Assembly: GCA_021201665.1 (NCBI GenBank) | Contig: JAJQEO010000119.1 | Coordinates: 1-64,000, forward strand | Length of the DNA: 64,000 bases | Reading direction: 5' to 3' | Source: Lachnospiraceae bacterium | GTDB taxonomy: Bacteria > Bacillota > Clostridia > Lachnospirales > Lachnospiraceae | In this document: positions 40,060 through 49,807 of the stretch, piece after piece | Layout: every line of letters starts with the position of its first letter | Numbering within the stretch: the stretch's first letter is position 1 | Notes under the pieces: generated by a model | The model's input: only the letters and a program-made list of their open reading frames with translations | Database searches by the model: none | What the model was told of the DNA's origin: nothing | Made by a program: the position numbers and the translations under genes

Positions 40060-40352
40060 AAAAACGACTTACGTCGTTTGCTATATATAAATATTCAGAG
40101 AAGGTCGTCTTTGCGTCTGCCGCGAAGACCGCAGGAAAACGTACAGCAAGCTGTTTCCTGTGCACCTTAGCAGTGCTTCCTGCATAGTATGAATATACAG
40201 GGGACGGAGTCTTTTGTCTCATGTATTAGCGCCGCCCAAACGCGAAGCGTTTTTAAAATGGCGGCGCGACCTGCCCCTCGCCGGGTTATGCCCCTCGCCG
40301 GGTGGCATCCCACGCTTCGCATGGGATATTCGCCGAGCGAAGCGAGGGGGCG
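40060..40352. repeat. Three stacked palindromic repeats between ftsW and murA
   Basis: Immediately after the ftsW stop lies AAAAACGACTTACGTCGTTTGC, a copy of the AAAACGAC palindrome. At 40229-40267 is a nested hairpin with arms GCGCCGCC/GGCGGCGC around AAACGC-GAA-GCGTTT. At 40270-40352 are doubled CCCCTCGCCGGGT units, an inverted CCCACGCTTCGCATGGG and a GAGCGAAGCGAGG. This accounts for most of the 322-base gap. Confidence 0.8.
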
Positions 40353-40381
40353 ATTCCATTCTTGCTATGGAGGAAAACTGA

Positions 40382-45912: not shown

Positions 45913-46824
45913 GTGCAAAAAAAGAATGTCCATATTGGTTCTCTCACTCTCGGGGATGGGATTCCGAAAATCTGTGTGCCGCTCACGGCCAGGAATTTTG
46001 CGCAGATGGAGAGCCAGCTTGATAGCATCCGCATGGCACCCTGCGATATGATCGAGCTGCGTGCCGACTACTATGAAGGAGACCCGATAGAAGAGCTGGC
46101 AGCTGTCCGTGAAAGGATGCCGGGTAAGCCCATTCTCTTTACCTTCCGCACAAAGGAAGAAGGGGGGGAGTGTGCGATTTCCCGCAAGGAGTATGCCCTC
46201 CTGAATCTGCGCGCGGCCGGTCTGCCGGAAGCCACAGGTACGCCGGAAGCCACAGGTACGCCAGAAACCACAGGTACGCCGGAAGCCACCGGTCTGACGG
46301 AAACCACAGGTGCGCCGGAAACCATCGGTCTGCCGGAAACCATCGGTCTGCCGGAAATCGCAGCTACTCCGGAGGCGCACCGAGAAGCAGGTACGGTACA
46401 TGCTGATTTGATTGATCTTGAAGTGAACAGAGGAGAAGAGTTTGTCCGCGATCTCGGAGCCCGGCTGCAAAGCGGGGGTGTGAAGACAGTCGTTTCCTAT
46501 CATGATTTTGAGCGCACGCCTGATGAAGAATTTCTGGTTCAGCTGCTTTGTCGGATACAGTCCCTGGGGGCGGATATTACAAAGGCAGCCCTGATGCCGC
46601 GTACAGAGCGGGACGTGCTGACCCTGCTGTCAGCGGCTGTGACGATGAAGGAGCAATTTGCAGACCGCCCTTATATTGTGATGTCCATGGGCCGATTAGG
46701 CTCTATCAGCCGCCTGGCAGGCCGCCTGACAGGATCTGCTGTGACATTCGCCGCGGCTGGAGCCATATCCGCACCCGGTCAGATGGATGCTGATTTTGTG
46801 GCGCATGCGCTGGAGCTTTTGTGA
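45913..46824 (+). CDS. aroD: Type I 3-dehydroquinate dehydratase with tandem-repeat insert
   Basis: Schiff-base-forming dehydratase of the shikimate pathway. Catalytic residues are visible: Glu in MIELRADYYEG (about residue 49), His in VVSYHDFERTP (about 198) and the Schiff-base Lys in ADITKAALMP (about 225). Residues 103-156 are nine hexapeptide units of GTPEAT/GLPETI type, encoded by an 18-bp minisatellite, placed between the ISRKEYALLNL helix and the LIDLEV strand. Removing them leaves about 249 residues, the usual family size. GTG start after AAAGGAG. Confidence 0.93.
   Translation: MQKKNVHIGSLTLGDGIPKICVPLTARNFAQMESQLDSIRMAPCDMIELRADYYEGDPIEELAAVRERMPGKPILFTFRTKEEGGECAISRKEYALLNLRAAGLPEATGTPEATGTPETTGTPEATGLTETTGAPETIGLPETIGLPEIAATPEAHREAGTVHADLIDLEVNRGEEFVRDLGARLQSGGVKTVVSYHDFERTPDEEFLVQLLCRIQSLGADITKAALMPRTERDVLTLLSAAVTMKEQFADRPYIVMSMGRLGSISRLAGRLTGSAVTFAAAGAISAPGQMDADFVAHALELL
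46219..46380 (+). repeat. 18-bp coding minisatellite inside aroD
   Basis: Nine consecutive 18-bp units of the form GGT-(ACG/CTG)-CCG-GAA-(GCC/ACC)-(ACA/ATC), the last degenerate. The unit is a multiple of three, so copy changes keep frame. The peptide (Gly-x-Pro-Glu-x-x) is likely an unstructured surface loop. Confidence 0.92.
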
Positions 46825-46901: not shown

Positions 46902-46973
46902 GTTAGGCACTTAAAAACGATTTTTTCGCAAAATGGCAAAATTTTGGTTCCGGCTTATCCGGGTTAGGTAATT
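46902..46973 (+). repeat. ~70-bp dispersed element, copy B (upstream of spoIIGA)
   Basis: Near-identical to the reverse complement of 29424-29492 (see there). It ends directly at the first Spo0A-like box of the spoIIG promoter. Confidence 0.8.
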
Positions 46974-47057
46974 GTCTAATTGTCGAAAAAACTCGATGAA
47001 AAAGAGGAATCAGGTTCCTGATTTTGACAAAAAAGGATGTCCCCTGTGGAGTATACT
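46973..47057 (+). promoter_or_regulatory. spoIIG promoter with Spo0A boxes and 22-bp spacer
   Basis: Consensus -35 TTGACA (47024-47029) and -10 TATACT (47052-47057) are 22 bases apart, the same unusual spacing as in the Spo0A-activated B. subtilis spoIIG promoter. Box TGTCGAA (46981-46987) matches the 0A-box consensus, TGTCTAA (46973-46979) is one base off, and the -35 lies within TTTGACAAA, whose reverse strand reads TGTCAAA, another near-box. Confidence 0.85.
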
Positions 47058-47088
47058 GGCAACAGATACGGCCACAGGGGATTTTTTT
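47041..47088 (+). terminator. Terminator hairpin straddling the spoIIG promoter
   Basis: CCCCTGTGG (47041-47049) and CCACAGGGG (47072-47080) form a perfect 9-bp stem followed by ATTTTTTT. The -10 and the predicted start (about 47064) lie in the loop, and the right arm contains AGGGGA, the spoIIGA ribosome binding site. Only read-through RNA from upstream can form the hairpin; RNA started at the spoIIG promoter lacks the left arm. Confidence 0.8.
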
Positions 47089-47090
47089 GA

Positions 47091-47870
47091 ATGGATTATG
47101 AGTTTTACATAGACCAGTTTTTCGTGGAACAACTCATAAGCGGATATTTGCTGCTTTTAGCAGCGGGGATCCTGTGCGGAATTACTCCGGATCGGCGCCG
47201 CCTGTTGTCTGGAGCCGTGATAAATGCGGGTTTTGCGGTTGGCTTTGTCATTTTTGGAAGCCCGTTAATCCTCCTGTCGGGGTTTATTGTCTCCGCGGCG
47301 GTTTCCTTCTGGAAATGGGGCTTTCGAAAGGAATGGAGGTACAACCGGGACATCACAGCTGGCCTGCTTGCCGCAACAATCTGCTTCGGAGGCATGCTAA
47401 GCGCATTGACTGCGATATTGCCGCTGCCGGTTTTTGCTCTGCTGGTACCGGCTCTGGAGCTGCTTCGCCTGCTTGCCCGTATGTTGAGGCAACGGATGCG
47501 GCAGGAGGAGACGGCAGCTATTGTTACGCTTTCTCTCAACGGAAAGAGCCTGAAGTTGAAAGGTCTTCTGGATACGGGCAACCAGCTCAGGGAACCGCTG
47601 ACTGCCTCTCCGGCCAGTATTGTGCAAAGGAAATCACTGGAACCATTACTGGACGGAGATTGGGCGGAGCAGAAAGGATTTTTCCTGATCCCTTATCACA
47701 GTCTGGGTACGGAAGAAGGATGGATGCAGGGAACCTGTATTGATGAGATGCATGTGGCGACGCAGCGGGGCTGTAAAACGGTCAAAAAGCCATTGATTGC
47801 CCTTTATGATAAAAATGTCAGTTCCAGACGGGAATATCAGATCATATTGCATCCGGAGCATGCACCATAG
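47091..47870 (+). CDS. spoIIGA: Sporulation sigma-E processing peptidase SpoIIGA
   Basis: Septal membrane aspartyl protease that cleaves pro-sigma-E in the mother cell. Four to five hydrophobic segments fill residues 10-125, followed by a cytoplasmic protease half with the catalytic KGLLDTGNQLREPLT (Asp about 161). The 259 residues are slightly short of the B. subtilis protein. AGGGGA eight bases before ATG. It precedes sigE by 111 bases in the classical spoIIG order. Confidence 0.92.
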   Translation: MDYEFYIDQFFVEQLISGYLLLLAAGILCGITPDRRRLLSGAVINAGFAVGFVIFGSPLILLSGFIVSAAVSFWKWGFRKEWRYNRDITAGLLAATICFGGMLSALTAILPLPVFALLVPALELLRLLARMLRQRMRQEETAAIVTLSLNGKSLKLKGLLDTGNQLREPLTASPASIVQRKSLEPLLDGDWAEQKGFFLIPYHSLGTEEGWMQGTCIDEMHVATQRGCKTVKKPLIALYDKNVSSRREYQIILHPEHAP

Positions 47871-48781: not shown

Positions 48782-49561
48782 TTATCCATTCAGATAGTTC
48801 CGCATGGACTTTAATGCATTTTTTTCCAGACGGCTGACCTGTGCCTGGGAAATCCCCAGCTCGGCAGCGACTTCCATCTGTGTGCGCCCGTCGTAGAACC
48901 GCATTTCAATGATATGCTTTTCACGGTCAGAAAGGCGGTTCATCGCCTCCTGTAAGGAAATTGATTCAACCCAGTTTTCCTCCCGGTTTTTCCGATCGCT
49001 GATCTGATCCATGACATAGAGGGTATCGCCTCCCTCCGAATAGACTGGGTCGTACAGGCTCACCGGGCTCTGGATAGCGTCAAGCGCATTGACAATCTCC
49101 TCCTTCGGGATACCGATCTCCTGGGCGATCTCGTTTACGGTCGGCTCTTTCTGATTCTTTTTTGTATAGTTTTCTTTTGCGTAAATTGCCTTGTAGGCGG
49201 TATCTCTCAGGGAACGGCTGACACGGATGGAATTGTTGTCACGCAAAAAACGCCGGATCTCTCCGACAATCATCGGAACCGCGTAGGTGGAAAAACGGAC
49301 ATTCAGACTCGTGTCAAAATTGTCAATGGCCTTCATCAGGCCGATACAGCCGATCTGAAACAAATCATCCACATTTTCACTGCTGTTCGGGAAACGCTTT
49401 ATCACACTTAAGACCAGCCGCAGATTCCCCTTGATATACAGCTCACGAGCTTCTTCATCCCCCTTTTGTATCCTTTCAAAGAGAAAATCCTTTTCCTCAT
49501 TCGTCAGAACCGGAAGCTTTGATGTATTGACGCCGCAGATTTCTACCTTTGTAAATGCCAT
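48782..49561 (-). CDS. sigG: Sporulation sigma factor sigma-G
   Basis: Late forespore sigma factor. Hallmarks: KVEICGVNTSKLPVLTNEE at the N-terminus, NLRLVLSVIKRF, VDDLFQIGCIGLMKAIDNFD, FSTYAVPMIVGEIRRFLRDNN and GRTQMEVAAELGISQAQVSRLEK. 259 residues from MAFTKVEICG; the ATG nine bases earlier touches GGGAGG and is too close to be used. It is convergent with sigE instead of downstream in the same direction as in B. subtilis, so spoIIG read-through cannot make sense sigG mRNA. Confidence 0.96.
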   Translation of the reverse strand: MAFTKVEICGVNTSKLPVLTNEEKDFLFERIQKGDEEARELYIKGNLRLVLSVIKRFPNSSENVDDLFQIGCIGLMKAIDNFDTSLNVRFSTYAVPMIVGEIRRFLRDNNSIRVSRSLRDTAYKAIYAKENYTKKNQKEPTVNEIAQEIGIPKEEIVNALDAIQSPVSLYDPVYSEGGDTLYVMDQISDRKNREENWVESISLQEAMNRLSDREKHIIEMRFYDGRTQMEVAAELGISQAQVSRLEKNALKSMRNYLNG

Positions 49562-49807
49562 GTGAATCATCCTCCCAAAAGTTCGGATACAGTCTGATTA
49601 AGACGAAAGCGGGACCTCTTTTTTCATCCCTGATAACATGATTCACTTTTTGCGGTCTGGTTATTCGTTTTTGAAAAAAATAAAAAAAATTTACAGCCTT
49701 GACTTATCGGCGGATATTTGTTTTCCCGGATAACTCCAATTTTAGAGTGGCAGTATATGGCAGCTTTGCGGCACACTTCTTTTCGGAAACCTGTAAGCAT
49801 TGCGTGG

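What the first reader, a model, noticed from the sequence alone, without database searches (positions are those of the whole stretch)
46973..47091. spoIIG promoter wrapped in a terminator that also hides the spoIIGA ribosome binding site
The stem CCCCTGTGG/CCACAGGGG followed by seven T spans the spoIIG -10 and start site. The right arm contains the AGGGGA ribosome binding site. RNA reading through from aroD would fold, terminate and mask the site; RNA started at the Spo0A-type promoter begins in the loop and cannot fold. This would insulate sigma-E production from vegetative read-through. An analogous hairpin masking the sigG ribosome binding site in read-through RNA is known in B. subtilis; I know of no such report for spoIIGA.
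Basis: partly seen in the sequence, partly recalled or inferred. Interest (0 to 1): 0.78.

Follow-up and report, generated by a model that had tools for sequence, protein, structure and literature searches.

The report
Sporulation promoter nested inside a terminator
In this gut bacterium the promoter that starts an early sporulation gene lies inside the loop of an RNA hairpin that looks able to stop, and to keep silent, RNA arriving from the gene before it while sparing RNA made from the promoter itself; relatives conserve the pairing, but no experiment has yet shown the effect.

Summary
A helix (47039-47049 with 47072-47082) followed by seven T encloses the spoIIG -10 and predicted start site; its 3' arm carries the spoIIGA Shine-Dalgarno, and ATG follows at 47091. 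Of 44 evaluable species of the genus, 42 have a terminator-like hairpin over the promoter. The arms covary (60 doubly changed cells against 11 in shuffles), and sense-strand G.U pairs outnumber A.C 77 to 2: RNA of the + strand is what is conserved. The predicted cost of opening the window's Shine-Dalgarno is 19.2 kcal/mol in read-through RNA and 1.5 in RNA from the promoter. In the genus, 38 of 39 loci behind aroD have this hairpin and 3 also a separate terminator; in other genera, 52 of 56 loci behind ftsZ have a separate terminator. So it is most likely a merged aroD terminator and spoIIG insulator. Shine-Dalgarno masking is common (33 of 44) but not universal. Similar designs occur in other Lachnospiraceae and two more families. 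The logic matches the B. subtilis sigG read-through hairpin: a new variant of a known kind. Start site, termination and masking are predictions.

The parts
45913..46824 (+). aroD (type I 3-dehydroquinase), upstream codirectional gene; the presumed source of read-through RNA
   Evidence: PF01487 E 4.1e-60; nearest upstream hit among AroD, FtsZ and AroE in 39 of 44 genus loci
46973..46979 (+). possible 0A (Spo0A) box, one mismatch to TGTCGAA
46981..46987 (+). 0A (Spo0A) box TGTCGAA, 43 nt before the -35
   Evidence: at least one such box (up to one mismatch) in 41 of 44 genus loci (30 matches at -43, 19 at -33); mean 1.23 per locus against 0.21 in shuffles
47024..47029 (+). spoIIG -35 TTGACA
   Evidence: spacer of 21 or 22 nt to the -10 in all 128 loci with a recognised promoter (20-23 allowed, with a small built-in preference for 21-22)
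47039..47049 (+). left arm of the hairpin, in the -35/-10 spacer; present only in RNA that comes from upstream
   Evidence: covariation
47052..47057 (+). spoIIG -10 TATACT, in the loop region of the hairpin
47063..47065 (+). predicted transcript start (6-8 nt after the -10), between the arms
   Evidence: inferred from promoter geometry; not mapped
47072..47082 (+). right arm of the hairpin
   Evidence: covariation
47076..47081 (+). spoIIGA Shine-Dalgarno AGGGGA, inside the right arm
   Evidence: opening cost 19.2 kcal/mol in read-through RNA, 1.5 in RNA from the promoter
47082..47088 (+). T7 tract of the terminator, which also fills the spacer between Shine-Dalgarno and ATG
   Evidence: terminator score d +24.2 (formula recalled)
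47091..47870 (+). spoIIGA (259 aa), named for the protease that activates pro-sigmaE
   Evidence: PF03419, 168.4 bits
47982..48722 (+). sigE, second gene of the spoIIG operon
   Evidence: sigma-70 regions 2 and 4; the name sigE is inferred from its place after spoIIGA

Best explanation
The hairpin is a self-exempting insulator. RNA polymerase that leaves aroD transcribes both arms; the helix forms and the following T tract should end the transcript just before the spoIIGA start codon. RNA that escapes termination still has the spoIIGA Shine-Dalgarno locked in the helix and should be poorly translated. RNA started at the Spo0A-type promoter begins between the arms, lacks the left arm, cannot form the helix, and is neither terminated nor masked. 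One sequence thus serves as aroD terminator, spoIIG promoter and spoIIGA translation start, and keeps sigmaE production tied to Spo0A. Shown by computation: the anatomy, conservation and covariation of the pairing in + strand RNA, the predicted difference in Shine-Dalgarno access, and the near-absence of another terminator-like site behind aroD in this genus. Inferred: start site, termination, translational block, and the benefit.
For: Spanning terminator-like hairpin in 42 of 44 evaluable genus loci. On alignment A1 (43 loci, 40 distinct; L040, which has no hairpin, left out by me), 15 outer and 3 inner pairs: 94% of cells paired against 46-57% when slid by 1-3, 10 pairs with changes on both sides, 60 doubly changed cells against 11.3 in shuffles (0 of 500), covariation score 0.378 against 0.227 (0 of 500). 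Over the 15 outer pairs: 480 Watson-Crick, 77 G.U, 2 A.C, 37 other mismatches. Own spacer pairs with own leader within the best 5% of 131 spacers in 43 of 44 genus loci, best of all in 36. Opening cost of the Shine-Dalgarno: median 18.0 (read-through) against 5.0 (promoter RNA) in the 33 genus loci that carry it in the arm, difference at least 5 in 33 of 33. Separate terminator between neighbour gene and -35: 3 of 39 aroD loci in the genus (38 of 39 have the spanning one); in other genera 52 of 56 ftsZ loci (2 of 56 spanning); of 6 aroD loci in other genera 5 have the spanning hairpin and no separate terminator, and the sixth, L061, has a separate one and no spanning one. Of 46 stretches in the genome collection that match a pattern of this hairpin, 42 directly precede SpoIIGA, 37 of these with AroD as the nearest upstream hit. 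Background promoter+ORF pairs in the same DNA: 1 of 64 spanning.
Against: No transcript start, 3' end or translation data exist here. By the terminator score (recalled formula) 16 of 33 genus loci with masked Shine-Dalgarno are not above zero, against 1 of 9 of the others (scores compared: p 0.065), so some may mask more than terminate. Masking is absent in 9 of 42 hairpin-bearing genus loci. L040 lacks the hairpin, and L006 has pairing but no T tract and a small masking gain (7.7 against 4.8). Outside the genus, shuffles that keep spacer composition and the Shine-Dalgarno region give spanning hairpins nearly as often as observed (6.25 against 9 of 84; 1.67 against 4 of 46), and loci with a masking difference of at least 5 were 14 of 83 against 6.9 expected and 5 of 44 against 5.9; the swap ranks of all 130 outside loci do not differ from uniform (KS p 0.14). 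The aroD association is not corrected for ancestry: independent pairs were too few (4), not significant.
Confidence: 0.68

Rival explanations
1. Terminator only: it is simply the aroD terminator, slid over the promoter in a short gap; masking of the Shine-Dalgarno is a by-product of a G-rich ribosome site lying in the 3' arm.
For: Nine of 42 hairpin-bearing genus loci keep the terminator but have no Shine-Dalgarno in it; separate and spanning terminators replace one another across neighbours; some gaps are very short (aroD stop 24 nt from the -35 in L015 and L043).
Against: 33 of 44 genus loci place the Shine-Dalgarno in the arm with the T tract as its spacer, as do L208, L241 and L244 in other families; loci with pairing but no T tract exist (L130, L133, L247, L006).
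Confidence: 0.2
2. Masking only: the T tract is too weak or interrupted in most species, read-through is common, and the hairpin acts on translation, as proposed for B. subtilis sigG.
For: Terminator score not above zero in 16 of 33 masked genus loci; mask without T tract in L130 and L133.
Against: The window itself scores +24.2 with T7; 8 of 9 loci without masking have positive terminator scores; no other terminator-like site stands behind aroD in 36 of 39 genus loci.
Confidence: 0.1
3. Regulated attenuator or riboswitch of the spoIIG mRNA itself: the real start lies upstream, and a ligand or protein opens the hairpin.
For: The shape (terminator next to a ribosome site) is that of an expression platform; the start was not mapped.
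Against: The -35, a 21-22-nt spacer and the -10 were recognised in 128 of 135 loci of the genus and other genera; 0A boxes sit at fixed places upstream in the genus and family; no Rfam family matches here. An aptamer-like element upstream of the left arm was not specifically sought.
Confidence: 0.05
4. DNA palindrome: a protein operator or cruciform over the promoter.
For: Near-perfect inverted repeat around the -10.
Against: 77 G.U against 2 A.C among the paired cells, and doubly compensated pairs of different letters: pairing in RNA of one strand is kept, not a fixed sequence.
Confidence: 0.02

Closest known systems
B. subtilis sigG read-through hairpin (large hairpin proposed to block translation of RNA from P-spoIIG)
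   Same: Ribosome site blocked in read-through RNA, hairpin absent from RNA made at the gene's own promoter, sporulation sigma locus, codirectional gene upstream (PMC5942855, passages seen).
   Different: Different gene and operon (spoIIGA, not sigG); here a T tract adds intrinsic termination and the read-through comes from a housekeeping gene. The passages seen speak of blocked translation and do not mention termination.
IS200 transposase leader
   Same: Guards against impinging transcription by a terminating stem-loop and one that occludes the ribosome site (PMC3196728, passage seen).
   Different: IS200 uses two separate stem-loops; here one helix would do both, with the promoter inside it.
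Free-standing terminators between ftsZ and spoIIG
   Same: Part the dcw cluster from spoIIG: two predicted terminator hairpins after ftsZ in B. mycoides (PMC3762067, passages seen); terminator-like sites here in 52 of 56 ftsZ-type loci of other genera.
   Different: They stand before the promoter and do not contain start site or ribosome site.
IS10 fold-back and phage T4 gene e leaders (recalled; only a search listing was seen)
   Same: Read-through RNA folds over the ribosome site; RNA from the own promoter does not.
   Different: Mobile or phage genes; no terminator, as far as recalled.

Membership tests
Intrinsic (rho-independent) terminator | G+C-rich stem directly followed by a T tract | tested here: met
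   11 pairs, then T7; spanning hairpin with T tract in 42 of 44 genus loci; terminator score +24.2 in the window, but only 25 of 42 genus loci above zero (formula recalled)
Intrinsic (rho-independent) terminator | RNA actually ends there | not testable with these tools
   no RNA data
sigG-type read-through hairpin | Start site between the arms, so own RNA cannot fold | tested here: inconclusive
   met for the predicted start (left arm ends at 47049, expected +1 47063-47065), but the start is not mapped
sigG-type read-through hairpin | Ribosome site inside the 3' arm | tested here: met
   window yes; 33 of 44 genus loci
sigG-type read-through hairpin | Codirectional upstream gene | tested here: met
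   window: aroD. Genus: AroD + in 39 and FtsZ + in 2 of 44 loci; 3 not identified
sigG-type read-through hairpin | Block of translation of read-through RNA | not testable with these tools
   needs a reporter
Spo0A-activated spoIIG promoter | -35 and -10 like sigmaA sites set 21-22 nt apart (spacing recalled) | tested here: met
   spacer 22 in the window; 21 or 22 in all 128 recognised of 135 (the search slightly favours 21-22)
Spo0A-activated spoIIG promoter | 0A boxes TGTCGAA upstream of the -35 | tested here: met
   41 of 44 genus loci, 51 of 84 in other genera; not enriched in the class sample, 6 of 46; motif as given in PMC3485338 (passage)
Spo0A-activated spoIIG promoter | Binding and activation by Spo0A | not testable with these tools
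   needs protein work
Known Rfam RNA family | Match at gathering score | tested here: not met
   no match at 46973-47091

The most novel reading that the evidence does not exclude
A promoter nested in the loop of a terminator is a recurrent, selected architecture at the spoIIG locus of Clostridia: one helix ends the housekeeping transcript, silences what escapes, and exempts the gene's own RNA because that RNA begins inside the loop. It arose at least three times (the aroD lineage of Lachnospiraceae, family f32 with L208/L216, family f35 with L241/L244) and trades places with free-standing terminators as the neighbour gene changes.
Probability: 0.4. Interest if true: 0.72.

Novelty: new variant of a known kind. 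Interest (0 to 1): 0.6.

Why it matters
SigmaE sets the fate of the mother cell in a sporangium (general knowledge), so stray RNA from a growth gene into spoIIG would be costly. If true, the locus shows how a cell can make a promoter blind to its neighbour without adding DNA: by letting transcription start inside the terminator. It would explain why a separate terminator is nearly absent behind aroD in this genus, gives a compact design for insulated promoters, and means that transcript ends mapped just before spoIIGA in gut Lachnospiraceae of this kind would be ends of the upstream RNA, not failed spoIIG RNA. In B. subtilis, read-through at a Rho-dependent terminator inside kinB is reported to raise Spo0A activity and sporulation (PMC5540618, passages), so control of read-through can matter for this decision.

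Tried and rejected
Shuffling the spacer alone and shuffling spacer plus leader with the Shine-Dalgarno kept were poor tests, because they keep C runs that pair with any G-rich ribosome site; a spacer-swap test was added. There, outside the genus, 17 of 130 loci have their own spacer in the best 5% (6.5 expected) and 6 in the best 1% (1.3 expected), yet the ranks as a whole do not differ from uniform (KS p 0.14), and the 114 loci left after setting aside 16 behave as chance (4 of 114 in the best 5%). Those 16 were chosen after their hairpins had been seen.

A stronger T tract where masking is lost was expected: T scores do not differ (p 0.49); terminator scores lean that way (p 0.065).

An ancestry-corrected test of hairpin against aroD neighbour was run and is uninformative (4 independent pairs on starred branches). 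Three origins of the spanning design are the simplest reading (11 changes on a FastTree tree with many weak branches), not a tested result.

A DNA operator was rejected by the G.U test. A known RNA family was not found. L084 was counted as spanning by the script but is weak and was not counted as spanning. Two papers opened for the spoIIG promoter spacing held nothing of use.

Rows dropped: L029 (3' piece of a split gene; its 5' piece L046 was used), L005 (contig ends before the promoter), 6 of 90 other-genera loci and 24 of 70 class loci without a recognised promoter; L040 left out of alignment A1 because it has no hairpin. Of 106 genomes over the cut-off (two of them of the own genus), 90 loci of other genera were read; of 78 genomes over the cut-off (own genome included).

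Full report
What is there. The window holds ftsZ, aroE (- strand), aroD, spoIIGA, sigE and, on the other strand, sigG (sigE and sigG are my names by order and similarity). Between aroD (stop at 46824) and spoIIGA (ATG 47091) lie a 0A box TGTCGAA at 46981-46987, TTGACA at 47024, TATACT at 47052 with a 22-nt spacer, and the hairpin of the finding. The left arm 47039-47049 is in the -35/-10 spacer; the right arm 47072-47082 contains AGGGGA, the spoIIGA Shine-Dalgarno; seven T fill most of the space to the start codon. The stretch folds far better than shuffles (z -5.9); RNA from the expected start does not (z -0.24).

Is the promoter real? The same element (TTGACA-like, 21 or 22 nt, TATAAT or TATACT) was recognised before spoIIGA in 44 of 45 genus loci and 84 of 90 loci of other genera (spacers of 20-23 were allowed, with a small preference for 21-22 in the score, and only 21 and 22 occur). 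TGTCGAA-like boxes sit mostly 43 and 33 nt before the -35: 41 of 44 genus loci have at least one (mean 1.23 per locus against 0.21 in shuffles), 51 of 84 in other genera (0.67 against 0.14), but only 6 of 46 in the class sample (0.13 against 0.09). This is the anatomy known for Spo0A-activated spoIIG promoters (spacing recalled; TGTCGAA core seen in PMC3485338, passage).

Is the hairpin conserved? The genus search gave 47 genomes, 45 with SpoIIGA; 44 loci could be judged (one contig ends too early; one split gene counted once). 42 of 44 have a terminator-like hairpin whose arms flank the -10. The exceptions are L040 (no hairpin; contig begins 85 nt before the -35) and L006 (pairing with a ribosome site, no T tract). 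On a sequence-only alignment of 43 loci (A1) the named structure (15 outer and 3 inner pairs) has 94% of cells paired (46-57% when slid), 10 pairs with changes on both sides, and 60 doubly changed cells against 11.3 in shuffles, 0 of 500. The structure was derived from these sequences, so the share of paired cells leans towards it. The tool warns that related rows can exceed shuffles without structure; the measures that count pairs are the safer ones. RNAalifold finds most of the same helix unaided: 14 pairs, 8 with both sides changed in some sequence. G.U cells number 77 and A.C cells 2: the pairing is kept in RNA of the + strand, not as a DNA palindrome nor in antisense RNA.

What does it do to the two kinds of RNA? 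The energy to free the Shine-Dalgarno was computed for RNA from 60 nt before the -35 and for RNA from the expected start. Window: 19.2 and 1.5 kcal/mol. In 33 of 44 genus loci the Shine-Dalgarno is in the arm (medians 18.0 and 5.0; difference at least 5 in 33 of 33). In 9 loci (L007, L009, L010, L011, L032-L035, L046) the leader is 70-185 nt long and the Shine-Dalgarno is not in the helix (difference at least 5 in 0 of 9), yet hairpin and T tract remain; in L009, L010, L011 and L035 no good Shine-Dalgarno was found before the start codon taken. Termination is thus the more constant feature by anatomy; masking is the commoner companion.

Whose terminator is it? Nearest upstream hit among AroD, FtsZ and AroE (only these three were sought): AroD in 39 of 44 genus loci, FtsZ in 2, none in 3. 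Scanning from the end of that gene to the -35: 3 of 39 aroD loci in the genus have a separate terminator, 38 of 39 the spanning one; both ftsZ loci have both. In other genera, 52 of 56 ftsZ loci have a separate one, 2 of 56 the spanning one (1 of these also a separate one), 3 neither. Of 6 aroD loci in other genera, 5 have the spanning hairpin and no separate terminator; the sixth (L061) has a separate terminator and no spanning hairpin. Over these 103 loci, 93 have exactly one of the two, 6 both, 4 neither: nearly every locus is insulated once, and in the aroD lineage the insulator is merged with the promoter. In an earlier scan of a shorter stretch (60 nt before the -35 to the start codon) 36 of 84 other-genera loci had a terminator-like site against 13% in shuffles; no shuffles were run for the longer stretch. 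Hairpin against aroD neighbour in other genera: 5 of 6 against 3 of 78, Fisher p 1e-5, not corrected for ancestry; the corrected test had too few pairs. The two ftsZ-neighbour genus loci and two with an unidentified neighbour (L011, L023) keep the hairpin, so it does not need aroD.

How wide is it? A pattern of the hairpin scanned over the genome collection (84,980 species) gave 46 stretches; 42 directly precede SpoIIGA, in records named Blautia, Robinsoniella, Fusicatenibacter, Hominisplanchenecus, Lactonifactor, Limivivens, Choladousia, Pelethocola, Parablautia and others, many of them unnamed Lachnospiraceae; of these 42 the nearest upstream hit is AroD in 37, FtsZ in 2 and AroE in 1 (Blautia hansenii, L151), and 2 lie at contig ends; 4 of 46 have no SpoIIGA. 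Some are the same genomes as in the genus set (matching contig lengths). The pattern sees only one sequence class of the hairpin; the window itself does not match it. In 24 distinct non-genus sequences the part of the helix not fixed by the pattern still covaries, less tidily (over 13 pairs 257 Watson-Crick, 36 G.U, 6 A.C, 13 other mismatches). The window's genus is Lachnospiraceae; members carry the NCBI names Parablautia sp. (L182) and Candidatus Choladousia (L152), matched to same-genus contigs by length (inference).

Outside the family, 46 of 70 class loci had a recognised promoter. Four have spanning terminators in quite different letters: L208 and L216 (family f32; masked in L208 only) and L241 and L244 (family f35; masked, T tract, then ATG). 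These families lie across a well-supported branch from Lachnospiraceae on the SpoIIGA tree, among loci without the design, which suggests separate origins; this was not tested formally. Composition-keeping shuffles do not separate these from chance (4 against 1.67); the swap test puts L208 and L216 best of 130 spacers and L244 within the best 5%, while L241 is not among the 24 best.

Other registers of the same idea: in L060, L083, L104 and L123 the T tract of an upstream hairpin runs into the -10, in L094 and L100 into the -35, and in several others (L074, L081, L091, L093) into the distal 0A box. These lie wholly before the start and are ordinary terminators packed tightly.

Known work. The B. 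subtilis sigG gene has a large hairpin proposed to block translation of RNA coming from P-spoIIG and unable to form in RNA from P-sigG (PMC5942855, passages). IS200 uses a terminating stem-loop and a separate occluding one (PMC3196728, passage). B. mycoides has two predicted terminators between ftsZ and spoIIG (PMC3762067, passages). Searches for spoIIGA with aroD (0 papers), spoIIGA with terminator (17 papers listed; titles and abstract starts seen, passages seen only in PMC3762067, PMC7438776 and PMC3485338), spoIIGA with terminator, read-through and promoter (2), spoIIG with Spo0A, Lachnospiraceae and promoter (2), and broader ones (listings) showed no report of this hairpin. The library is open-access only and lacks most subscription journals. 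It is a new variant of a known kind: the logic of sigG, at a new gene, with termination added.

Verdict. Confirmed observation; interpretation supported and widened. Confidence 0.68 that the hairpin blocks spoIIGA expression from read-through RNA by termination and, where the ribosome site lies in the arm, by masking. No step of the mechanism has been shown experimentally.

Noticed in passing
window 48782-49570 (-); also L002, L031, L008: sigG is inverted, facing sigE, in the window, its two closest relatives and L008, while 23 other clear sigG hits in genus loci read the same way as sigE; L008 looks like a separate inversion.
   Followed up: partly
window 40224-40361 (+): Match to Rfam GA-cis RNA (RF02987), 34.8 bits against a cut-off of 34.7.
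   Followed up: no
L067, L069, L070, L074, L081, L082, L086, L089, L093, L104, L110, L111, spoIIGA leader: Several other genera share a conserved leader element after the -10 (CTTGCTTGAG...CAAATCGATTTAGTA-like, in whole or part) inside the gene's own RNA; function unknown.
   Followed up: no
L060, L083, L104, L123, L094, L100, L074, L081, L091, L093: Upstream terminators whose T tract is fused with the -10, the -35 or the distal 0A box of the spoIIG promoter.
   Followed up: partly
L007, L035 (spoIIGA leader), L021 (upstream): A shared G+C-rich repeat with inverted ends lies in the long spoIIGA leaders of two species and, in part, upstream in a third; perhaps a small mobile repeat that moved the ribosome site out of the hairpin.
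   Followed up: no
window about 46216-46400: AroD of this species carries an insert of Pro-Glu-Ala-Thr-Gly-like repeats; the Pfam match comes in two stretches.
   Followed up: no
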